The position numbers were made by a program, and so were the translations under genes. Shown here piece by piece: positions 5,400 to 58,743 of a DNA stretch of 64,000 nt. This stretch comes from Paenibacillus aceti (lineage in GTDB: Bacteria; Bacillota; Bacilli; Paenibacillales; Paenibacillaceae). Positions within the stretch are counted from its first letter, which is position 1. Each line of letters begins with the position of its first letter. The DNA is taken from positions 4,997,878 to 5,061,877 of the forward strand of contig NZ_KZ987724.1 of the NCBI RefSeq assembly GCF_003614185.1, written 5' to 3'. A model generated the notes under the pieces. That model was not told where the DNA came from, searched no databases, and saw only the letters and a program-made list of their open reading frames with translations.

Positions 5400-5830
5400 T
5401 GGAAAAACATCATGTTTTTCGTCTAACCTTTTTTGTGGGCAAAGCCACAATCCCAGACGTAGTATTTATTCGCGCCGGCTTCGATCTTTGTACCATCTAT
5501 TAAGCTTGCGTGGCGCAAGAGACAAACACGGTCGGTCAGGACTCTCCACTGATCTAGCGGTCAAAAATGTCCGTTAGAGCATGAAAACAACCACTACGCT
5601 CCTCTAACGGACACTTTTGACCCTTAGAAGCGAAAAATTCCATTTTTCGCGACAATTTCCTTTGTAACGGACATTTATGTCCGTTACAAAGGCGGGGTGA
5701 CACAGAATCAACGCTAACGGACATAAATGTCCGTGTACGAGTGACCCGGCCAGAACAGGGGGATGCACGCATTTTGGGGTACGCAAAAGAGGCGTCTTCA
5801 AGTCGGAAGATCGACTTTTAACACAGCCCC
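5400..5830. repeat. Hairpin-rich dispersed element, copy A (one end missing)
   Basis: About 430 bp matching copies at 36111-36604 (opposite orientation) and 58306-58743. It lacks the outer 45 bp at its left end, where it abuts the DUF4367 pseudogene, and its right terminal repeat is degraded (ACACAGCCCC instead of GAGACAGCCCC). Contains the central 34-nt palindrome at 5659-5692. The right end lies 17 bp from the stop codon of the M16C gene, and its terminal hairpin can terminate that transcript. Confidence 0.85.
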
Positions 5831-5847: not shown

Positions 5848-8800
5848 CTACCTCATGCTATTCAAATCAATGATGCTCTCAAACTTGATGCCTGAATTAT
5901 CGATCATCGTTTGATTGGACTGAATGAAGATCTTTTTCTCTGAGGTCAATTGTTCAAGAGCTGGAGCATAAGACTTCAAATCGTCCAAGGTTGTTGAGAG
6001 GATTTCTTGGCGTTCACGCTTTAGGTCAGCTTTAGAGTACTGCTTATAATACATACTTGCGCCGATTCCTTGTACACCGCCATTTTCTGTACTTGTGTTT
6101 AAATCAAAATCATTCACGGTGGTGATGATGATGTTTTCTAGCTCTAGCTCAGTTAGCTTCGATTCACGCAGAAATTTGCCAAGCCCGTTGAAAACCTGGA
6201 GAGTTGCTGGGATATCCGGAGTTCGAGCAGCATTGAGCAGTACACTATTGTCTTCATTGATTTGCATACTTCCGGCATAAGCGCCTGCATCACGCATCAT
6301 TGGCATCAAATAATAGGTTTCCAAATATTTGGCCAGAACTCTCAACTTACCGGAGTAAGCGATACTGGAATCAGCGAGATTGCCCACCTGCATAACGGTG
6401 GCTACGTTCTCCGAGCGGCTTTGGTCGACAATAGCTAAAGAGTTTGGAACCGCAGGCAACTGAATGGTTGGCTTAGGATATACTTTACTGTTCAACTTAG
6501 CTAGTACCGGCTGCATGGATTCTCTAGCTTGCTTGTAGAAAGAACTACTACCACTTACATCGATGACTAGACCGTTGCGATTGAATACCTTGTCTCGTAT
6601 AGCGGAGATTTTCTCCAAAGCTGCTTTTTGCTTATCTTTACTTGAGTTAACTTCTCGCAGATAGTGTAAATAAGACAAGGAGCCTGAGCCAATAGGGCCG
6701 GAGGCTAAGGTGTTATACCGATTAGCTGCTGATTGACTAGCTATGGCGTAATCGTAAATGAAAGCTTCATCTACCACATTGTAATGTACATTTTGCTCAA
6801 TTCCCTTCAGATAATCCTCCAACTTACCAGAATTGAGAAAGCTTGAATCGTTTACGACCGTATCTAATTGCTCCAAAAGATCTTCAAGTTCAGTTTCTTT
6901 GCCATGAATGATGACATTTAGCGTAGGATGATATTCCGCGTTATTATTATATTTGCCATAGGTAGTGGAGAAGAAGCTAATTCCTTTAATGTTTCGTTGC
7001 TGTAGAACCTGATTATAGATATCGACCAGCAATTTAGCTTCAACCGCCTGTGAAGTCTCTAGGACGGATTGGTCAAATCCTAAGAGAATCGAAAATTCCC
7101 CTTTCATGTCAAAGTTAGTATGTGTATAAACCATTTGATCGATTGTCTCTTTTGTAGCGTCGAAGTTGAGGGAAGACTGTTTGAAATCCTCAAGTTTAAG
7201 TCTAGGGGTGGCTTGTAAGACTTCGGCAGATTCAGGCGTCGTCAACCATTTCTCAAACGCCTCGGATTGCTGCTGAATGGCCGCCAGCTCAGCTTTGCTG
7301 TATTGTTTCTCAGGAGCCTTTTTCTTGGCAGAAGGTTTGTTCTGGCTGTTGTCTCCCGCTATGACCGTACTTTTGTACGGGTTATCAAGGAAATAGCGTT
7401 TGACGATACTTTGCAGATAACTCTGCCCCTCTGGTTTCTTAAATTCGTTATAGTAGGCAGCTTTGTCCAGATAGAGAAGTGGATTATCGGCGTATGTAAA
7501 GCCATCCATTACGTTGGTGATATTACTTAAATCACTGCTATAACTTGAGTATTCATTACTTTGGTCCATCTGGGAAATGAGCTCTTCACGGTTAAAGCCG
7601 TTCCCCGCGAAGCCTCTCAGTGTCTGCATATAATCCGTGATGACTTTCTCCTTCTCAGCAGTCGCTATATCTGGAAAAAGGATTCCTTGTGTAAGTATTC
7701 CTCTTTCATTCCCAATGACGGTCAGCAGACTTGGATAGACTTTCGATACTTTCTCACTCGTTAGACTTGAGATTATGTCCATGGCTGCGACTGCCTTTGG
7801 ATCTTTCATAGAAGGGCCAGAAAATAGCAGACCAACGCCGTATGAATCTGGTTTGTTTTCTCCTGGTAGGGCGGTATAGATTGTTCCTGATGGGATATTA
7901 GGCATGTCGTCAAAGCTGATATCTTCATTAGGCTCAGGCTTGTATTTCGATAGATAAGAATCGAGGGTGCCAAGTGTCCAGTTCAGGTCCTGATTGCCTG
8001 AGAGATAGATTAGCGCATTAGAAGGTTTGTAGAATTGGCGATAGACCTTAAGCACATCTTCATAAGTGAGCTGCTCTAATCCTTCTAACGTGCCGCCACT
8101 CGTAAAACTGAGGGAGGTTCTGCCATAAAGACTGTTATAAAGTTGTTCCATCAGGAATTGACTGGCCTCCCCACCTTTATTCATTCTTCCCTTTATCTCG
8201 TTGTACACGATCCCGTTATATTGAACTTGTCCATTTTTAATTTCTTGGCGTACGCCTTGCTGCAGGAAAATGTTCTTTTCATGTAAAAGCATAGGTTTCA
8301 GTAACGCGTTGATGTATACATCTGCTAGATTCTGAAAATCCCTCTTATTTCTAGTCGTAAAAGGGTACATTGTATAATCATCTGACGTCATAGCATTCAA
8401 CAAGCTGGCCACGGAATTGCCTTTAAGAGAAATTTGAATATTACGCGAGGGGTACTTCTCTGAGCCGCACAGAAGCGCATGCTCCAGTACATGGTTTGCT
8501 CCCTTATCATCTTCAGGCGGTGTCTTGAATCCAATAGAAAAGGACATATCCTCGCTATTATTATCAAAATAGAATACCTGTGCACCTGAACTATGCCTTA
8601 ATAAATACGCGGTTTGTTGTTCATTTAACTGCTGTTTCTTAACAAAAGTAAATCCATATTTGGCTATATCAATTCCTGCAATGTTATGGTCAAAGGTTGG
8701 ACTTAATGGAGTTACTGTCTCAACAACAGCACCAGGTGATCCTTCATTAGATACGGCTGCCAAAACAGAGCTTGAAGCTGACAAGGTTAGGCTGGCTGAT

Positions 8801-8853
8801 AGCAATATAGCGCAACTTCGTTTACTAAAACATGATTTCAGAGTGATCTTCAT
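5848..8853 (-). CDS. Secreted M16C-family zinc metallopeptidase (presequence-protease type)
   Basis: A 1001-residue member of the M16C (PreP/Cym1-like) clan of clamshell proteases that degrade peptides. Unlike the usual cytosolic members it starts with a signal peptide (MKITLKSC, hydrophobic core, cleavage near SSVLAA). The inverted zinc motif HVLEH is at residues 121-125 (H121, E124 catalytic, H125) and the third ligand is E219 in YNEIKGRM. The remaining length supplies four M16-type domains. ATG start with TAGGAG 10 nt upstream. Downstream is repeat copy A; upstream is a non-coding gap, so the gene stands alone. Probable role is breakdown of extracellular peptides at the cell surface; substrate unknown. 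Confidence 0.92.
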   Translation of the reverse strand: MKITLKSCFSKRSCAILLSASLTLSASSSVLAAVSNEGSPGAVVETVTPLSPTFDHNIAGIDIAKYGFTFVKKQQLNEQQTAYLLRHSSGAQVFYFDNNSEDMSFSIGFKTPPEDDKGANHVLEHALLCGSEKYPSRNIQISLKGNSVASLLNAMTSDDYTMYPFTTRNKRDFQNLADVYINALLKPMLLHEKNIFLQQGVRQEIKNGQVQYNGIVYNEIKGRMNKGGEASQFLMEQLYNSLYGRTSLSFTSGGTLEGLEQLTYEDVLKVYRQFYKPSNALIYLSGNQDLNWTLGTLDSYLSKYKPEPNEDISFDDMPNIPSGTIYTALPGENKPDSYGVGLLFSGPSMKDPKAVAAMDIISSLTSEKVSKVYPSLLTVIGNERGILTQGILFPDIATAEKEKVITDYMQTLRGFAGNGFNREELISQMDQSNEYSSYSSDLSNITNVMDGFTYADNPLLYLDKAAYYNEFKKPEGQSYLQSIVKRYFLDNPYKSTVIAGDNSQNKPSAKKKAPEKQYSKAELAAIQQQSEAFEKWLTTPESAEVLQATPRLKLEDFKQSSLNFDATKETIDQMVYTHTNFDMKGEFSILLGFDQSVLETSQAVEAKLLVDIYNQVLQQRNIKGISFFSTTYGKYNNNAEYHPTLNVIIHGKETELEDLLEQLDTVVNDSSFLNSGKLEDYLKGIEQNVHYNVVDEAFIYDYAIASQSAANRYNTLASGPIGSGSLSYLHYLREVNSSKDKQKAALEKISAIRDKVFNRNGLVIDVSGSSSFYKQARESMQPVLAKLNSKVYPKPTIQLPAVPNSLAIVDQSRSENVATVMQVGNLADSSIAYSGKLRVLAKYLETYYLMPMMRDAGAYAGSMQINEDNSVLLNAARTPDIPATLQVFNGLGKFLRESKLTELELENIIITTVNDFDLNTSTENGGVQGIGASMYYKQYSKADLKRERQEILSTTLDDLKSYAPALEQLTSEKKIFIQSNQTMIDNSGIKFESIIDLNSMR

Positions 8854-28852: not shown

Positions 28853-30367
28853 TTGACGGTATATAAGACATTCGTCTCTCGTCTTCTGCTTCAGTACGTA
28901 GTAGGTGCTGTGATCGCCATCGTAACTATCGGTGGGTTAATGATATTTATGCCGTTTAGCCTTAGTCAGCAGGAGTGTTATCTCATCATTGGCATCCTGG
29001 CTGTCTCAGTATGTACCATGCTGGTGCTGGAAGCTATTATACTCAAGCGGCAGATCAAGCCGATCAAATTGGCGTTTCTTGAAGGGGTGGATAGCTTCCA
29101 GTCCATGCAGAACGTGTATTTCCGGGCGCATCGGTATCCGGAGCTGGCGGCAAGGCGTATTCTCGGTCCTCATTTATTCGGACTCATGCTGCCTTTGGTC
29201 GGTTTGACGTTGCTGTTTATCCATACCGGCCAACTGTCGATTCCTTATTATTATGTCATGCTGGTGTTCGTTACCGGAGCACTGATCGTCGGGATGCACA
29301 CTTTGATTGAATTTTACCTGACCTATAATTATGTTCGACCGGTTCTGACCGAGTTATGTACCCAGTCCTTCGCACAGTTCGGCAGAGAGCTGTCCCTTGG
29401 CGGCCGCGTATTCATCCCACTGAAGCGCAAATTAAGATGGAGCCTATTCCTGATGGGGGCGATCCCACTGCTGCTATATGGGCTATGCGTTCAGTTCGGG
29501 GTAGAAGGCTGGAATATGGGCCGAATAACCTCTTATTGGTATTGGGCGCTCGGCGTATTGGTGATAGGACTTGGCTACTCATTTATCGGTTCCAGACTGC
29601 TTACACGGGAAATTGTCCTGCCGATTCAGCATTTATATGAACGTATGTCTGATGTGCAAATTGGTCATATGCATACCGGGGCGAGCGATCTATTCTCTGA
29701 TGAGTTCTCTCGATTGGTGTGGGGATTTAACCATATGCTGCGTGGGATCAATGTGCAGAACGCCCGCAACAATCAATTGGTGGAGAGCTATTTCGCCACC
29801 TTGGCGGCTGCCCTGGATGCCAGAGATCCTTATACGGCCGGGCATTCCCTGAGAGTAGCGGATTATGCGGTTCTCATCGGCAGGCTTGCCAAATTGAACG
29901 AGCGGGAGATGAATGAGCTACGTCAGTCAGCACTTCTTCATGATATAGGCAAGATAGGAATTCGTGATTCGGTTCTGTTAAAAGAGGGCAAGCTGACCGA
30001 AGCGGAATGGGAGCAAATCAAGGAACATCCGGTGCTAGGTGAGACGATATTGAAGCAGATTGAGCCGACGAGTTTCATGGCTCCGATTCTGCCCGGAGTC
30101 CGCTCGCATCATGAACGATATGATGGCAAAGGATATCCTGATGGGCTTAAAGGTGAGGAAATCCCGTTATTTGGCCGGATTATCGCGGTTGCGGATGCCT
30201 TCGATGCGATGACCTCCAACCGTCCCTATCGTGCAGGACTGGACCGAAAGACGGCGTTAGCTATTCTGGAGGAAGGCCGGGGAACGCAGTGGGACCCTTA
30301 TTTTGTGGGCTTATTCGTGGAAATGATGAGAAGAACTGAGCTTGATGTAGCAGCGTCTAAAGAATAA
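28853..30367 (+). CDS. Membrane-bound HD-GYP domain protein (probable c-di-GMP phosphodiesterase)
   Basis: A 504-residue protein: six hydrophobic helices in two groups (residues 12-65 and 100-255), a HAMP-like linker near 260-310, then an HD-GYP domain. Metal-binding HD lies in ALLHDIGKIGI (near 362) and the GYP signature in HHERYDGKGYPDGLKGEE (near 420), with the conserved VADAFDAMTSNRPYR after it. This domain hydrolyses cyclic-di-GMP in most characterised proteins. Start is a TTG with GGAAGGA about 10 nt upstream. The 3' end is followed by solo repeat end D. Confidence 0.9.
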   Translation: MTVYKTFVSRLLLQYVVGAVIAIVTIGGLMIFMPFSLSQQECYLIIGILAVSVCTMLVLEAIILKRQIKPIKLAFLEGVDSFQSMQNVYFRAHRYPELAARRILGPHLFGLMLPLVGLTLLFIHTGQLSIPYYYVMLVFVTGALIVGMHTLIEFYLTYNYVRPVLTELCTQSFAQFGRELSLGGRVFIPLKRKLRWSLFLMGAIPLLLYGLCVQFGVEGWNMGRITSYWYWALGVLVIGLGYSFIGSRLLTREIVLPIQHLYERMSDVQIGHMHTGASDLFSDEFSRLVWGFNHMLRGINVQNARNNQLVESYFATLAAALDARDPYTAGHSLRVADYAVLIGRLAKLNEREMNELRQSALLHDIGKIGIRDSVLLKEGKLTEAEWEQIKEHPVLGETILKQIEPTSFMAPILPGVRSHHERYDGKGYPDGLKGEEIPLFGRIIAVADAFDAMTSNRPYRAGLDRKTALAILEEGRGTQWDPYFVGLFVEMMRRTELDVAASKE

Positions 30368-30390: not shown

Positions 30391-30467
30391 GAGATGTTCA
30401 CATTTTTGGGCACGCAAAAGGGGCGTCTCAAGTCGGAAGATCGATTTTTGAGACAGCCCCTATTTTT
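30391..30467. repeat. Solo right end (copy D) of the hairpin-rich element, acting as terminator
   Basis: About 75 bp identical in layout to the right ends of copies A, B and C: a GATGTTCAC lead, then GGGGCGTCTCAA pairing with TTGAGACAGCCCC around a GTCG/CGA inner stem. It lies between the convergent HD-GYP and PAP2 genes, 13 bp from the PAP2 stop, with T- or A-rich flanks suitable for termination both ways. Confidence 0.75.
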
Positions 30468-30473
30468 GCAGAG

Positions 30474-31166
30474 CTATAAATTTACGTCCTGATCAGGTCT
30501 CGGCGGCTTGGTTAGTGCAGCGCGGGATGTCGAACCTTGGCGCGCACGCGAGTAGCTGTTCCATACTTTCGTAATAATTATAAATACAATTTCACCTAAA
30601 ATTATGGAGCCCAATGCATCGTAGATTACATGCTGCTTCACCAGCAGGGTCGAGATAATAATTAATACGGCTCCGGCAATGAAGGCGGCTTTGACCGATT
30701 TGCGAATCGTTCTTGCAGCCAGTGCTCCCCTCATAATGACATAGGAGTGCAGGGCGTGAATACTTGGAAAGCAGTTATATGGATTGTCCACCCCGTATAC
30801 ATAATCGAGCAACAGCTTCTTATCCCAGGTGTCAGGAATCACCTCGGGACGTATAACGGTGGTCTGGTAATAGAAGTAAATGAAATAGCAGACAATAAGT
30901 CCGATGTTCATGACGATAATCGTGCGATAATAGGCCGATCTATCCTTGTAACAGAGATAAAGAATCCCGATGATGATATAAGGATACCAGCCGATATAAG
31001 GGATGGCCATCGACGGGATGAGTGGAAGCCAGTCATCGATCGGAGAGGTCAGGACATGGACATTCCGGCCTCCATTATTAAGCAAGCCGTAGAACAGACC
31101 CATCAAGCCTATTGAAGCTGAGAAGCATAATGCACGAAGATAATCTTTGGATAGATACTGCCGCAA
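30474..31166 (-). CDS. PAP2-superfamily membrane phosphatase / inositolphosphotransferase-like
   Basis: A 230-residue membrane protein with about six hydrophobic helices. The PAP2 catalytic residues are visible as CFPSIHALHSYV (near 133) and KQHVIYDALGS (near 194), the forms found in the Aur1/Ipt1-like branch. Such proteins act on lipid or prenyl phosphates at the outer face. The start is set at a TTG (31166) with GAGGTGGT 6 nt upstream; the longer version from 31196 has no ribosome site. Convergent with the HD-GYP gene. Confidence 0.8.
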   Translation of the reverse strand: MRQYLSKDYLRALCFSASIGLMGLFYGLLNNGGRNVHVLTSPIDDWLPLIPSMAIPYIGWYPYIIIGILYLCYKDRSAYYRTIIVMNIGLIVCYFIYFYYQTTVIRPEVIPDTWDKKLLLDYVYGVDNPYNCFPSIHALHSYVIMRGALAARTIRKSVKAAFIAGAVLIIISTLLVKQHVIYDALGSIILGEIVFIIITKVWNSYSRARQGSTSRAALTKPPRPDQDVNL

Positions 31167-31323
31167 GAATACACCACCTCGTAGAAGTTTGTTCAATCGT
31201 CAATCAACGATAGCATTATCATAACAATTTTTGGGCGATGAAGGAAATGAGAGGTTGCGATGAGCATTCATTAGCGGATACAATTAATAGAATTAATGAA
31301 TATTCGCAAAAGGCGGGATTGAA

Positions 31324-35279: not shown

Positions 35280-36092
35280 ATGGAACATAGCAGTAGAAAT
35301 CCCGCGCTTAGCCAGGTCGAACTGAAGCTGACTGCGGAGGGGCTGCGGGTCACGCTTCCTGCACAGGAAGTCCCAGAGGAGGCGGGGCAGAATCGCCGGG
35401 TCGTTCTGCTACCGCGGCTATTCTTCGACCAGGCCAGGCAGAATCTGCTCGATCGTCTGCAGCAGTTTCCGCTGCAACTCGCAGCTCTTGATGAGGAGGG
35501 GGCTGAGGCGGTCGCCGATCTGCTGCCCCGGCATTTCCGGCAGCTACATTTGAACGAGGAAGCCCGTAAGGACCCTCATGCAGCGATGGTACGCGGCTCT
35601 GTCTGCTCTTGCGGGCAGATGGGCTGCGCTCATATCAGCGAAGCGTTGGAGGGCGTAGAGGCCGCTTGGAGCGCGGTTACAGCTGCGACCCGGCTGGAGT
35701 GGCTAGGCTGGACCGCGGAGACGCTAGTCCATGCCGTACTCGACAGCTGGGCGGCACAAATGCCGATGAGGGATGCCGAGGCTGAGCTGAAGCGGATCGC
35801 CGGGCGTCTCGATACCCCGGCATACAGGAGCAAGCAGGGGGAGCTGAACCTCGCCGAATGGCTGGCGGAAATGGTCCATAACGGCCGCCTCCATCAACCC
35901 GGGCCAGAGCTCCATGATGTGGAGATCAACCTGTCCCAAGCGAAGCTGCAGGTGCAGGCTGATCGTCTGCAGGCTTGGACGAATCTGCTCCCGGGCGTGC
36001 CAGGTGCGGCGCAGGGCCTGTCGCTCATCCTTGAGCAGACAGGCAAGAATGCGGAGCAGCTTGCCAAGCGGTTCAGGGCACAGAAGCCATGA
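35280..36092 (+). CDS. SWIM zinc-finger protein, partner of the SNF2 ATPase
   Basis: A 270-residue protein whose only clear motif is a SWIM-type zinc site, CSCGQMGCAH (near residues 109-118; CxC-x4-CxH). The flanking regions are helical and charged. SWIM proteins often sit next to bacterial SNF2 genes and probably help DNA or protein binding. ATG start preceded by GGGAGGGCC; 13-bp gap from the SNF2 gene indicates one operon. The 3' end is natural-looking, and repeat copy B begins 18 bp after the stop. Confidence 0.75.
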   Translation: MEHSSRNPALSQVELKLTAEGLRVTLPAQEVPEEAGQNRRVVLLPRLFFDQARQNLLDRLQQFPLQLAALDEEGAEAVADLLPRHFRQLHLNEEARKDPHAAMVRGSVCSCGQMGCAHISEALEGVEAAWSAVTAATRLEWLGWTAETLVHAVLDSWAAQMPMRDAEAELKRIAGRLDTPAYRSKQGELNLAEWLAEMVHNGRLHQPGPELHDVEINLSQAKLQVQADRLQAWTNLLPGVPGAAQGLSLILEQTGKNAEQLAKRFRAQKP

Positions 36093-36110: not shown

Positions 36111-36604
36111 ATACGAAGGGGCTGTCTCAAAAGTCGATCTCCCGACTTGAAAGGCGCCTCTTTTGCGTGCCCAAACGTGCCCAAAGATGTGAACAGCCCC
36201 CTGTTTTGGCCGGATCACTCGGACACAGACATAAATGTCCGTTAGCGTTGATTCTGTGACATCCCGCCCTTGTAACGGACATAAATGTCCGTTACAAGGG
36301 AAATTGCCGCGAAAAATGACATTTTGTGCTTCTAAGGGTCAATAATGTCCGTTAGAGGAGCTAAGTTGTCGTTCTCAGGCTCTAACGGACATTTTTGTCC
36401 GCTAGATCAGGGAAGAGTCCTGACCGTTCGGGTTTGTCTCTTGCGCCACGCAATCTTAATAGATGGTACAAGGATCGAAGCCGACGCGAATAAATACGGA
36501 GTTTGGGATTGTGGCTTTGGCCCACAAAAAAAGTTGGACGGAAAACATGACGTTTTTCCGCCTAACTTTTTATTTTAGAGACTTATTGGACAGCCCCTTC
36601 GTAT
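36111..36604. repeat. Hairpin-rich dispersed element, copy B (complete)
   Basis: A 494-bp element bounded by perfect 16-bp inverted repeats ATACGAAGGGGCTGTC (36111-36126) and its complement (36589-36604). It is the most intact copy, inverted relative to copies A and C. Inside are at least five hairpins, including the 34-nt palindrome at 36267-36300, and a 10-bp tandem duplication (TTGGGCACG-type) near 36170-36183. No open frame of note. Lies between the 3' ends of the SWIM gene and the alarmone synthetase gene. Confidence 0.9.
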
Positions 36605-36638: not shown

Positions 36639-37319
36639 TTACGTGAGTAGATTCGGGTGATCCGTGTGATCCGTGTGAACGGGCTCAGAGCTGCCCATAA
36701 TCTCTTTGCGCAGACCGCACATTTTCTTGTCCAGGGCATCTGCGGCTTTGGCGGCTTCGGTCAGTTCTTCAACGACATGATAAGGCACTTGCTTCTCATA
36801 TTTATAGTATAGGATATGCTCCATGCTGGCCCAGAAATCCATAGCTAGCGTGCGCATTTGGATCTCAACCTTCATCCAGCGCTGTCCCTCCAGCAAGGTG
36901 AGGGGTACGGCGACGATCAGATGCAGGCTCTGATATCCATTCGGCTTCGGATGCTCGATATAATCCTTGATCTCTAATATGGTGATGTCATCTCGTTGCT
37001 TGAGATGATCCAGCAGACTATATATATCCTGGACGAAGGAGAAGACGATACGCATACCAGCGATATCATGGATCTTGTTGACGATATTGTCGATTGTGAC
37101 GTCATATCCTTTGCGCTGCAGCTTGCTCATAATGCTCTTCGGCTCTTTGATACGTGTTTTTATATGTTCGATCGGGCTGTATCCGTTGTCGATCTTCCAT
37201 TCGGTTTGAATTAGCTTGATTTTGTTCTTTAGTTCATCCAGTGCAAGTTGATATAGGATAGGAAGCTTCTTCCACTCTTCAAATTTACGCAGGTCATTCT
37301 CGCCGATTTCCCAATACAA
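36639..37319 (-). CDS. relQ: Small alarmone (p)ppGpp synthetase, RelQ/YjbM type
   Basis: A 226-residue single-domain RelA/SpoT synthetase. Core blocks: YSPIEHIKTRIKEPKSI (near 46), DIAGMRIVFSFVQDIYS (near 87), IKDYIEHPKPNGYQSLHL (near 116, the substrate-binding G-loop side) and VEIQMRTLAMDFWASMEH (near 150). It transfers pyrophosphate from ATP to GDP/GTP. No hydrolase domain. The TTG start has no proper ribosome site; an AGGAG at 37393-37389 lies 9 nt before an in-frame CTG at 37379, so the real protein may carry about 20 extra N-terminal residues (the frame stays open). Confidence 0.88.
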   Translation of the reverse strand: MYWEIGENDLRKFEEWKKLPILYQLALDELKNKIKLIQTEWKIDNGYSPIEHIKTRIKEPKSIMSKLQRKGYDVTIDNIVNKIHDIAGMRIVFSFVQDIYSLLDHLKQRDDITILEIKDYIEHPKPNGYQSLHLIVAVPLTLLEGQRWMKVEIQMRTLAMDFWASMEHILYYKYEKQVPYHVVEELTEAAKAADALDKKMCGLRKEIMGSSEPVHTDHTDHPNLLT

Positions 37320-39019: not shown

Positions 39020-39038
39020 TGTCGTTTTTTCATAGATT

Positions 39039-39826
<788 letters not shown>

Positions 39827-56893: not shown

Positions 56894-58288
56894 ATGATTA
56901 ACAACAAGCTATGGGGGAAGTGGAGCCGCCTAGCGGCAACTGTACTACTAGGGGCTACGGCGCTTTTCGGGGGGACTGATCTAACTGTAAGGGCAGAGCA
57001 AGCCCAAGCCCAGACCCCGGCACCGATAATTAGCAATTGGTCTGTTCCTACCCTTCATGAGGGAGAGAAATATGGAATATTCCCGATCAGTTGGTACTAT
57101 GACGGTATCTTTCAGCAACCGATTGACCAAGCTAAGCTAAGCATGTTGCTTGAGGGGACTGCTGCCAAGCTGGATCAGCTTGGTTACAATAAGAAGGATT
57201 CAACGATGCCCTTGGTGGCTGTGGATAGCAAAGTGATCACTAGAGATACAGTTCTGCAATCTCTGCACGGCTTATTAGCTCGTTATGAGCTGCCGAAGGC
57301 ATTCGGACTTGATTCCGTTGCTCCGGTGGACTATCTTCAGCAGAAGGGGATTGTGACAGGTACGAAGAGCGGCCTTGAGCTCGATCGTCCTTGTACCGTT
57401 GAGCAGGCAACCGTGCTTGCTTCCAGATTAGTAGAATTTAGCTATGACACCGCCGAACAAGGCGCGAAGGGCGTTTTCTGGAAAGTAACCCATAACGACA
57501 ACACTATGTATCTGCTGGGCTCCATTCACCTTGGCATCTCTGAGATGTATCCGTTGGAGAAGAAAGTCAGAGATGCATTTGATGCTGCGGATGATCTATG
57601 GGTAGAGGTCGATACGTTATCTTCGGATATGAGCTACCTTATCGAGCAAATGAGCTATACAGATGGGACGAAGCTTCAAGACCATATCTCAAAAGAAACT
57701 TATGAGAAGCTGCAAAAAGTGCTAGCGAAGATGGAAATGCCGGAGCAGACATTTGATAGCTCCAAGCCAATTGCAGTTACCACTAACTTATCTACATTGG
57801 CTCTGTTCGAGCAGCCTGAGCAAATCGCCATGGCGTCGTTAACCGGAATTGATCAATATTTTCTTACCAAGGCCAAATTGACAGGTAAACCGATTCACGA
57901 GCTGGAAAGCGTGGAGCTTCAATCCGATGTCTTCACTTCCGTCAGTCCCGAAGCCCAAGAGGAAGGGTTGAATGCAATGCTGGATCAACTGCTTGGAGAT
58001 GGGAACAAGGAAATCGCCAAGGCCTTCAAGCAGATGCAGCTGGATTGGGCGAAAGGCGATAAAGATGCGGTTGGCGAATGGCTCACTCAAGGTTTGACCG
58101 AAGGCGAGTTCAACAGCAACCTGGTCGGTGAACGGGACACCAATATGGCCAAGAAGCTGGCTGAGGTCCTGGAGCAGGATGGGAAAAGAACTTCCTTCGT
58201 TGTCGTCGGCTCCGCCCACTATGTTATGAAGGGCATGGTCATCGATCAGCTGAAGGAAAAAGGTTATGATGTGCAACTAGTGAAATAA
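56894..58288 (+). CDS. Secreted TraB/GumN-type protein, paralogue of the preceding gene
   Basis: A 464-residue exported protein: signal peptide to about residue 33, an N-terminal helical region (40-185) that replaces the copper amine oxidase-like stalk of its neighbour and looks like paired SLH-type repeats, then the TraB/GumN domain from 190 (FWKVTHNDNTMYLLGSIHLG, with GSIH, and a final VVVGSAHYVMKGMVIDQLKE). ATG with GGAGGC 11 nt upstream. Its own promoter gap of 152 bp separates it from the first copy. Repeat copy C begins 17 bp after the stop. Confidence 0.88.
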   Translation: MINNKLWGKWSRLAATVLLGATALFGGTDLTVRAEQAQAQTPAPIISNWSVPTLHEGEKYGIFPISWYYDGIFQQPIDQAKLSMLLEGTAAKLDQLGYNKKDSTMPLVAVDSKVITRDTVLQSLHGLLARYELPKAFGLDSVAPVDYLQQKGIVTGTKSGLELDRPCTVEQATVLASRLVEFSYDTAEQGAKGVFWKVTHNDNTMYLLGSIHLGISEMYPLEKKVRDAFDAADDLWVEVDTLSSDMSYLIEQMSYTDGTKLQDHISKETYEKLQKVLAKMEMPEQTFDSSKPIAVTTNLSTLALFEQPEQIAMASLTGIDQYFLTKAKLTGKPIHELESVELQSDVFTSVSPEAQEEGLNAMLDQLLGDGNKEIAKAFKQMQLDWAKGDKDAVGEWLTQGLTEGEFNSNLVGERDTNMAKKLAEVLEQDGKRTSFVVVGSAHYVMKGMVIDQLKEKGYDVQLVK

Positions 58289-58305: not shown

Positions 58306-58743
58306 GGGGCTGTCCAATAAGCCTCAAAAATAAAAAGTTGGGCGGAGAAACGTCATGTTTTCCGTCCAACTTTTTTGTGGGCCAAAGTCACAATCCCAAA
58401 CTCAGTGTGAACCTTCTCTAGCCCCCGCAAGGAGAACCAACAGAACGAGCCAGATTTTCCACTGACAAGCGGTCAAAAATGACCGTTAGAGCATGAAAAC
58501 AACAACTAAGCTCTTCTAACGGACACTTTTGACCTTTAGAAGCGAAAAATGCAATTTTTCGCGGCTATTGCCCTTGTAATGGACATAATTGTCCATTACA
58601 AGGGCAGGATGCCACCAGATTAACGCTAGCGGACAATTATGACCGTTAGCGTTAATCCGGCTAGAATAGGGGGATGTTCACATTTTAGGACACGCAAAAG
58701 GGGCGTCTCTCAAGTCGGAAGATCGACTTTTGAGACAGCCCTT
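58306..58743. repeat. Hairpin-rich dispersed element, copy C
   Basis: A 438-bp copy with terminal GGGGCTGTC and GACAGCCC. Contains a strong hairpin with T-tract near the left end (GTTGGGCGG...CCGTCCAAC, 58336-58369), a central palindrome at 58571-58604 and a further one at 58620-58653. Compared with copies A and B it has compensating changes in the stems. It lies between the second TraB gene and the DUF3829 gene. Confidence 0.88.

What the first reader, a model, noticed from the sequence alone, without database searches (positions are those of the whole stretch)
36111..36604. Dispersed 430-495 bp hairpin-rich element with terminal inverted repeats, always just past a stop codon
Three full-length or near full-length copies (5400-5830, 36111-36604, 58306-58743) and one solo end (30391-30467) share a layout: terminal GGGGCTGTC...GACAGCCC repeats (16 bp perfect in copy B), a string of at least five hairpins and no coding capacity. 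The distances to the nearest stop codon are 17, 18, 17 and 13 bp, and the terminal hairpins read as rho-independent terminators in either orientation. This suggests a non-autonomous mobile element that settles at gene ends, or a structured cassette used as terminator. I do not recognise it as a named family.
Basis: seen in the sequence. Interest (0 to 1): 0.75.

Follow-up and report, generated by a model that had tools for sequence, protein, structure and literature searches.

The report
Mobile element that swaps gene terminators
In this bacterium at least 40 copies of a small element, some still carrying scraps of an IS1182 transposase gene, sit mostly just after gene ends; where sites could be compared, related species have a predicted transcription stop signal there, which each copy likely replaced and is predicted to stand in for.

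Summary
The element is composite: a GGGGCTGTC... hairpin with a T-run at the left, four palindromes spaced 50/60/50, and, where kept, the 3' end of an IS1182-family insertion sequence with transposase scraps. No intact IS1182 transposase was found in the genome. No target-site duplication in 17 of 17 testable copies. At 12 of 12 loci with conserved neighbours and an element-free relative, the relative has a predicted intrinsic terminator; with the element cut out the home genome has one at 2 of the 12; ordinary gene ends in the window score 9 of 30. The two flanks of a copy are complementary beyond chance (P about 0.0005), as if the base of a target stem were left behind. This matches the 'inverted repeat-replacing' transposition of IS1272, also IS1182 family (PMC5678879, PMC4923244). 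'Always' past a stop codon is too strong: 26 of 40 lie within 30 bp of an incoming stop, 0 of 34 between divergent genes. Verdict: a non-autonomous IS1182 derivative that likely swaps a host terminator for its own; new variant of a known kind.

The parts
36118..36597 (+). Copy B of the element, terminal repeat to terminal repeat (480 bp)
36111..36117 (+). ATACGAA, left flank complementary to the right flank; read as residual base of the replaced target stem
   Evidence: inference
36598..36604 (+). TTCGTAT, right flank, complement of 36111-36117, followed by TTTG
   Evidence: inference
36118..36164 (+). Left-end hairpin GGGGCTGTCTCAAAAGTCG...GGCGCC plus T-run; terminator-like for the upstream gene
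   Evidence: (-15.1 kcal/mol); not picked up by the stricter scan
36223..36244 (+). Palindrome P1 of the four-palindrome array
36273..36294 (+). Palindrome P2 (perfect)
36333..36354 (+). Palindrome P3
36383..36404 (+). Palindrome P4
36456..36506 (+). Remnant of IS1182 transposase coding sequence (LIDGTRIEADANKYG)
   Evidence: tblastn 6e-4
36487..36600 (+). Remnant of IS1182 transposase C-terminus (TEFGIVALAH) joined to the IS 3' end
   Evidence: tblastn 1.4e-5; DNA 82.9% over 76 bp to the G004 IS at 36523-36598
36537..36562 (-). Right-end hairpin with T-rich sequence on both sides; terminator-like on both strands
35280..36092 (+). Upstream gene ending 18 bp before 36111
36639..37319 (-). Convergent downstream gene; 90.8 and 88.7% identical protein beside the empty site in G008 and G003
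5400..5830 (-). Copy A, right terminal repeat lost; left end 17 bp from the stop of the 5848-8853 minus-strand gene
58306..58742 (-). Copy C, both ends present; 17 bp after the stop at 58288
30391..30467 (-). Solo left end between convergent genes 28853-30367 and 30474-31196

Best explanation
The element is a family of at least 40 non-autonomous copies whose right end, where kept, comes from an IS1182-family insertion sequence; they likely moved by cutting out the stem-loop of a host intrinsic terminator and taking its place, and their own hairpin ends are predicted to act as the new terminator. Shown: copy number, IS1182 transposase scraps and IS 3' end, no target duplication, a terminator-like hairpin at the orthologous empty site in sister species and its absence from the home flanks, complementarity of the two flanks. 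Inferred: that an IS1182 transposase acting in trans moved them, that loss of the old terminator and insertion were one event, and that the ends terminate transcription in the cell. The four-palindrome array in the middle looks like a separate, older module of unknown role.
For: IS origin: 76 bp at the right end match the 3' end of an IS1182 element in G004 (82.9%), with shorter matches to the one in G021; the G021 transposase scores 417 bits on NF033551 transpos_IS1182, cut-off 270. Scraps of that transposase are found in 13 of 40 copies at E <= 0.01. No TSD of 3 bp or more in 17 of 17 copies. Empty sites: copies B and C and the flanks of 26 further copies were searched in relatives; 31 ortholog regions of 18 own loci were scored: 26 of 31 have a terminator within 200 nt of the stop, against 54 of 310 shuffles; own flanks with the element cut out 2 of 18, own sequence with the element 12 of 18. 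Leaving out the two L066 regions, which hold relatives of the element, 24 of 29. Restricted to loci whose far-side gene is also conserved and whose ortholog has no element: 12 of 12 loci, against 9 of 30 ordinary gene ends in the window, Fisher P 5e-5. Best junction: the L013 ortholog in G008 reads CATACCAACATATGCAAATGCTCCCCGGTTTATGGGGAGCATTCATTTT, own reads CATACCAACATATGCAGAT[GGGGCTGTC...GACAGCCCC]ATTTTT. Flank complementarity: summed run 30 against mean 12.8 in mispaired copies, n=17, P 0.0005. Precedent: IS1272.
Against: 25 of 40 copies do not reach the IS right end of copy B (some of them still end in a GACAGCCCC-like repeat), and in G008 and G003 the element goes without it, so how those moved is not explained. 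9 of 17 testable copies show 0 or 1 bp of residual stem, and some longer runs are A/T only, such as L064. 5 of 31 ortholog regions gave no terminator (L014 in G008, L029 twice, L030 twice; for L030 in G008 my start rule cut into a visible hairpin). In relatives the hairpin can lie well after the stop (49 to 94 nt at L011, L022, L025), while at home the element is 15-20 nt after it, so position is not always kept. The relatives are diverged, so 'insertion beside the terminator, then decay of the old one' is not fully excluded. Own copies pass the terminator rule at 8 of the 12 syntenic loci, not all. No intact transposase is left to test in this genome.
Confidence: 0.78

Rival explanations
1. 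The element inserted at random and survived only at convergent or downstream gene ends, where insertions do little harm; old terminators then decayed because the element's hairpins made them redundant.
For: No copy of 34 lies between divergent genes and 18 of 34 are convergent. Pneumococcal repeats and IS elements are enriched between convergent genes and are read that way (PMC3049150, passages).
Against: Predicts traces of the old hairpin beside the element; cut-out flanks hold one at only 2 of 18 loci. Does not predict that the two flanks of one copy pair with each other nor the junction at the stem base at L013.
Confidence: 0.15
2. Two things joined: an old palindrome repeat with a terminator hairpin (as in G008 and G003) that later received IS1182 insertions at its right edge, the palindromes themselves being hairpin targets.
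For: The left hairpin plus palindromes exists without the IS end in G008 and G003, in a shortened form in Paenibacillus sp. GM2 (L245), and 25 of 40 own copies do not reach the IS end; several different right joints exist.
Against: The left end itself carries the GGGGCTGTC repeat that pairs with the IS right end, and 14 copies have both ends. This rival concerns the origin of the composite and is compatible with its later movement as one unit, so it overlaps the best explanation.
Confidence: 0.45
3. A conserved structured RNA or riboregulator in 3' untranslated regions, not a mobile element.
For: Strong folding (z -11.3); some copies are at the same place in other species (L068/L082/L083, L066/L171).
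Against: Palindrome arms do not covary: column pair 7/16 is unpaired in 21 of 28 rows, and no covariation measure stands out from the shuffles. No Rfam match at the gathering score. Copies at 12 syntenic loci are absent from sister species.
Confidence: 0.07

Closest known systems
IS1272 / TnSha1 (IS1182 family), inverted repeat-replacing transposition
   Same: Family of the transposase remnant; targets hairpins, five of seven sequenced targets supported as terminators by RNA-seq data; no target duplication; loss of target stem-loop (PMC4923244, passages; PMC5678879, abstract, passages and section 22).
   Different: IS1272 is autonomous with an intact transposase; here the copies are non-autonomous, at least 40, and appear to supply a terminator themselves. 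Hosts differ.
MITEPye1 of Paracoccus yeei (IS1182-type MITE)
   Same: Short non-autonomous element with IS1182-like terminal repeats, mostly intergenic, folds into long stem-loops (PMC11578231, passages).
   Different: MITEPye1 is reported with direct repeats and 1-3 chromosomal copies; this one has no TSD and at least 40 loci, and carries transposase scraps and a palindrome array.
SPRITE repeats of Streptococcus pneumoniae
   Same: Dispersed terminator-like repeat close to 3' ends of genes, enriched between convergent genes (PMC3049150, passages).
   Different: SPRITE is an AT-rich repeat with an 18-bp duplex; the paper could find no comparable empty site. Here the IS family of one end and empty sites are known.
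BIME / REP mosaics (recalled, not from a call)
   Same: Arrays of imperfect palindromes with fixed spacings after genes.
   Different: No link to a Y1 transposase: the one found here, 14 places, has no match in G008, G003, G026 or G025, of which the first three carry the 50/60-type array.

Membership tests
IS1182-derived MITE | Terminal repeats shared with an IS1182 element | tested here: met
   76 bp at the right end 82.9% identical to the G004 IS end; both ends of the G021 IS begin GGGGCTGTCC. The left end shares the repeat and hairpin layout, but no BLAST-listed stretch.
IS1182-derived MITE | No functional transposase; internal deletion of the parent | tested here: met
   Transposase scraps around residues 199-216 and from 534-567 onward of the 623-aa G021 frame, in 13 of 40 copies
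IS1182-derived MITE | Multiple dispersed copies with shared ends | tested here: met
   At least 40 loci; 34 left ends, 15 right ends, 14 both of 40
IS1182-derived MITE | Cognate transposase in the same genome (usual, not defining) | tested here: not met
   Only fragments in G000 (one 526-aa query)
IR-replacing transposition (IS1272 type) | No target-site duplication | tested here: met
   0 of 17 copies with 3 bp or more
IR-replacing transposition (IS1272 type) | Target is an inverted repeat lost on insertion | tested here: met
   Terminator-like hairpin in relatives at 12 of 12 syntenic loci, in own cut-out flanks at 2 of 12; over all, 26 of 31 regions and 2 of 18 loci
IR-replacing transposition (IS1272 type) | Blunt cuts in the stem, leaving complementary flanks | tested here: met
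   P 0.0005, n=17, statistical only; junction at the stem base seen at L013
IR-replacing transposition (IS1272 type) | Observed before and after in near-identical strains | not testable with these tools
   One genome per species is held
Intrinsic terminator | GC-rich hairpin followed by a U-tract | tested here: met
   12 of 18 own loci read from the gene side by my rule. The scan tool found the right hairpin of copy B on both strands but not its left one, and neither the ends of copy C nor the solo end; copy A was not scanned
Intrinsic terminator | Transcripts end there | not testable with these tools
   No RNA data
Canonical TSD-making MITE | Target-site duplication | tested here: not met
REP/RAYT system | Y1 transposase in the genomes that carry the palindromes | tested here: not met
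   PF01797 matches in G000 only, none in G008, G003, G026, G025

The most novel reading that the evidence does not exclude
A class of mobile terminators: a dead-IS derivative that spreads by exchanging a host terminator stem-loop for its own double-ended terminator, so each jump is nearly neutral for the host. Inside it rides a four-palindrome array with a fixed 50/60/50 spacing that recurs in another family of the order (50/61/50) and looks like paired protein-binding half-sites (AACGGWCA) rather than RNA stems.
Probability: 0.5. Interest if true: 0.75.

Novelty: new variant of a known kind. Interest (0 to 1): 0.62.

Why it matters
If true, it gives a mechanism for a known pattern, dispersed terminator-like repeats close to gene ends (for example SPRITE), and shows how a transposon family can spread at almost no cost by replacing one terminator with another. 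It makes terminator turnover in evolution testable: sites, ends and the transposase family are named. The IS1182 insertion mode is known from staphylococci; here the same signature is seen in non-autonomous copies, at least 40 loci, of another lineage.

Tried and rejected
Rejected: a known RNA family (Rfam gathering scores, only a purine riboswitch at 39022-39122). Rejected: RNA hairpins kept by selection in the palindromes (no covariation above shuffles). Rejected: a Y1/RAYT link of the palindromes. Looked for an IS1182 with the palindromes in the 5 IS loci examined (L116, L117, L318, L319, L320): no palindrome core and no match of the palindrome model at E <= 1; other IS copies were not examined. 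The scan of genome contigs for the 19-base left end gave 68 stretches in many phyla, so the 19-mer alone is not specific; a regex found no palindrome in any of the 68 and a transposase match only in L249, but that regex was too strict: the model search of 8 of the 68 shows a weak palindrome (E 0.023) in L245, Paenibacillus sp. GM2, right after the left hairpin. A script with fuzzy matching timed out and was redone. A first automatic flank test missed L001 and L002 through too narrow a scan (P 0.009) and was rerun; a hand-picked version gave P 0.00025. In one search the right end of L023 looks like a chance match beyond the element, kept in the count. Of the 35 matches listed, 28 were used and 7 dropped (2 second-place matches of the L005 flank, 5 short ones or ones without a locus); 12 of the 40 copies were not flank-searched. 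Literature: 8 searches (IS1182 with terminator and stem-loop, Paenibacillus with MITE, IS1272, IS1182 with MITE, REP with Paenibacillus, terminator-replacing wording, IS1182 with palindromic, MITE with rho-independent and stop codon) showed no paper on this element among the titles and abstracts listed; searches list 12 of 24 and 10 of 13; most subscription journals are not held.

Full report
What was checked. The three copies and the solo end are in the window at the stated places. The palindrome TAACGGACANNNNTGTCCGTTA has 11 matches with up to 3 mismatches in the window and a mean of 0 in 100 shuffles. Copy B folds 11 standard deviations below its shuffles. The window lies in a 5.6-Mb genome (G000), which holds at least 40 loci of the element (78 pieces merged by me; 40 of 60 candidate places were scored).

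Anatomy. Three modules. (1) A left-end hairpin, GGGGCTGTCTCAAAAGTCG...CGACTTGGAGACGCCCC followed by TTTTG; aligned over 48 sequences of three species its 11 consensus pairs are standard in 44 to 47 of 48 rows each, with a few two-sided changes. (2) Four palindromes P1-P4 spaced 50/60/50. (3) A right end of variable make-up; in 15 of 40 copies it matches copy B to its end. That right end is the 3' end of an IS1182-family element: 76 bp at 82.9% identity to the element in G004, and shorter matches to the one in G021. Before it, in 13 of 40 copies at E <= 0.01, lie pieces of transposase coding sequence, such as LIDGTRIEADANKY and SFRRFSLRGLEKVHTEFGIVALAH, with the intervening and following parts missing. 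The G021 transposase (526-aa stretch used) is IS1182 by NCBIfam NF033551, 417 bits against a cut-off of 270, and has Pfam DDE_Tnp_1_6. Different copies have different joints between modules 2 and 3 (read from the sequences). No intact IS1182 transposase is found in G000, only fragments; among 41 genomes of the genus 7 have a match at E <= 1e-60 and only G021 has a full-length close one, while G018 and G022 have near full-length ones at 47-48%. The copies are old: best pair 96.8% identical over 283 bp, median of 640 pairs 85.4%.

Where it sits. With a home-made gene caller, 34 of 40 copies have both neighbours called: 18 convergent, 16 tandem, 0 divergent; intergenic regions of at least 60 bp in the window, element-bearing ones included, give 5, 24 and 6 of 35 (Fisher P 0.0009 for convergent, 0.025 for divergent). 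Twenty-six of 40 have a stop codon reading towards them within 30 bp of the edge of the BLAST match (counted from the rows); the other 14 are farther away, overlap a called gene or have no called gene there.

What was there before. Copies B and C and the flanks of 26 other copies were searched in relatives; 12 of the 40 copies were not. Regions were found in G008 and/or G003 for 18 own loci including B and C; 28 of the 35 matches plus three regions for B and C make the 31 regions scored. At copy B both relatives have a hairpin AACAGCTGCAGGGAGC...GCCCCTTGCAGCTGTT followed by Ts, and no element; at copy C G008 has AACACCGCGTGC...GCACGCGGTGTT followed by Ts (there the far gene was found by search and the near gene recognised by eye). 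Over all, 26 of 31 regions have a terminator by one fixed rule (single hairpin of -9 kcal/mol or better, 5 Ts in 7, within 200 nt of the stop), shuffles of the same regions 54 of 310, own flanks joined without the element 2 of 18, own sequence with the element 12 of 18. The rule misses hairpins with a shorter T-run, such as L013 and L061 at home. Sites were then checked for conservation of the gene on the far side and absence of element-like sequence: 12 own loci qualify (L001, L005, L006, L008, L011, L013, L021, L022, L023, L024, L025, L064), and in 12 of 12 a syntenic relative has the terminator; own cut-out flanks have one at 2 of these 12 (L005, L064), own sequence with the element at 8 of 12. 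Other gene ends in the window that are not inside operons have one in 9 of 30. Loci that did not fit: L014 (one of two relatives without), L029 (both without), L030 (both without by the rule, though hairpins are visible, and in G008 my start rule cut into it). L066 is occupied in G008 by an old relative of the element, and by the left hairpin alone in G003; without these two regions the count is 24 of 29.

Junctions. At L013 the own sequence follows the relative through CATACCAACATATGCA and into the base of the hairpin, then has the element, then a T-run. If the cuts lie in the stem, the two flanks of one copy should pair with each other. Summed Watson-Crick runs are 30 in 17 copies, against 12.8 on average when left and right flanks are mispaired (P 0.0005); with perfect right ends only, 18 against 5.9 in 10 copies (P 0.0017). 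The effect is uneven: 9 of 17 copies have a run of 0 or 1. The 16-bp repeat of copy B is the longest case. There is no duplication of 3 bp or more in 17 of 17.

Mechanism. For IS1272, an IS1182-family element of staphylococci, two groups report targeting of hairpins, with loss of part or all of the stem-loop and no duplication; in one, five of seven sequenced targets were supported as terminators by RNA-seq data (PMC4923244, passages; PMC5678879, abstract, passages and section 22). The element here shows the same signatures. I therefore read it as a non-autonomous IS1182 derivative that took the place of terminators and, since its ends are themselves hairpins with T-runs, kept the function. 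The step 'moved by an IS1182 transposase' is inferred from the shared ends and scraps; the step 'terminates in the cell' is predicted from sequence only. A sign that such ends can be kept: an IS1182 3' end with its hairpin sits after the same gene (379-aa frame, recognised by eye as mnmA-like) in G001, G005, G012 and G023. Not all MITEs carry terminators: for MITEAba12 none was predicted (PMC6382973, passages).

The palindromes. They are a separate puzzle. The arms are conserved as half-sites AACGGWCA; the position W does not pair with its partner in 21 of 28 rows of the first palindrome (10 of 28 in the second), and covariation does not exceed shuffles, so I do not see an RNA stem under selection. 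Arrays with the same order and 50/61/50 spacing occur in G026 of another family, and a tandem 50/61 array without the element ends lies at C1:3757 kb of the home genome. A model of the pair finds 6 of 198 genomes of the order at E <= 1e-6, in four genera (run with stricter filters that lose weak matches; G003 and G008, positive, are not among the six, and the output does not show whether they were drawn). In G003 and G008 the left hairpin and palindromes occur without the IS end; some are at the same place as own copies (L068, L082, L083), so this part is older than the split of these species. A shortened form, left hairpin plus one palindrome, is in Paenibacillus sp. GM2 (L245). Whether the array was captured by an IS1182 element, or IS1182 elements inserted into it, is open.

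Novelty. The kind (MITE; IR-replacing IS1182 transposition; terminator-like repeats at gene ends) is known in parts; the combination at this scale, with empty sites, is what is new to me. The listings show no paper on it; that is not proof that none exists.

Noticed in passing
39022-39122: Purine riboswitch aptamer, 74.5 bits, the only Rfam match in the window at the gathering score.
   Followed up: no
L078 (G000:C1:3755500-3759500), about 1680-2084: Tandem array of the same palindromes with alternating 50/61 spacing, without the element's ends.
   Followed up: partly
L272-L282 (G026); L302 (G034); L303 (G181); L304 (G217): Palindrome pairs in other families of the order; in most of the G026 loci read, four palindromes spaced 50/61/50.
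   Followed up: partly
L283-L291 (G025): A different palindrome AACGGGCA....TGCCCGTT, in 7 of the 9 loci in units of 103-107 bp.
   Followed up: no
G000, 14 places, e.g. L292-L299: Fourteen equally scoring Y1 transposase genes (157-aa frames), no match in four relatives searched: perhaps a recent IS200-like expansion.
   Followed up: no
L086, L087, L088, L095: An IS1182 3' remnant with its hairpin is kept after the same gene in four species, a likely adopted terminator.
   Followed up: partly
L322, L324, L328, L329, L331, L333 (G039): Seven matches to the middle of the IS1182 transposase (about residues 217-326), perhaps another internal-deletion family.
   Followed up: no
L071, L072, L073 (G000): The same left-hairpin sequence with a T-run but without the TAACGGACA palindromes.
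   Followed up: no
L245 minus strand, about 3910-3750 (Paenibacillus sp. GM2), compared with L093 and L101 (G008): Left hairpin directly followed by one palindrome, and beyond it a stretch (ATTCCTGCGCCTCATGT...GGGGAGAA) that by eye looks shared with the sequence after P4 in G008, so the older element may have its own right part.
   Followed up: no
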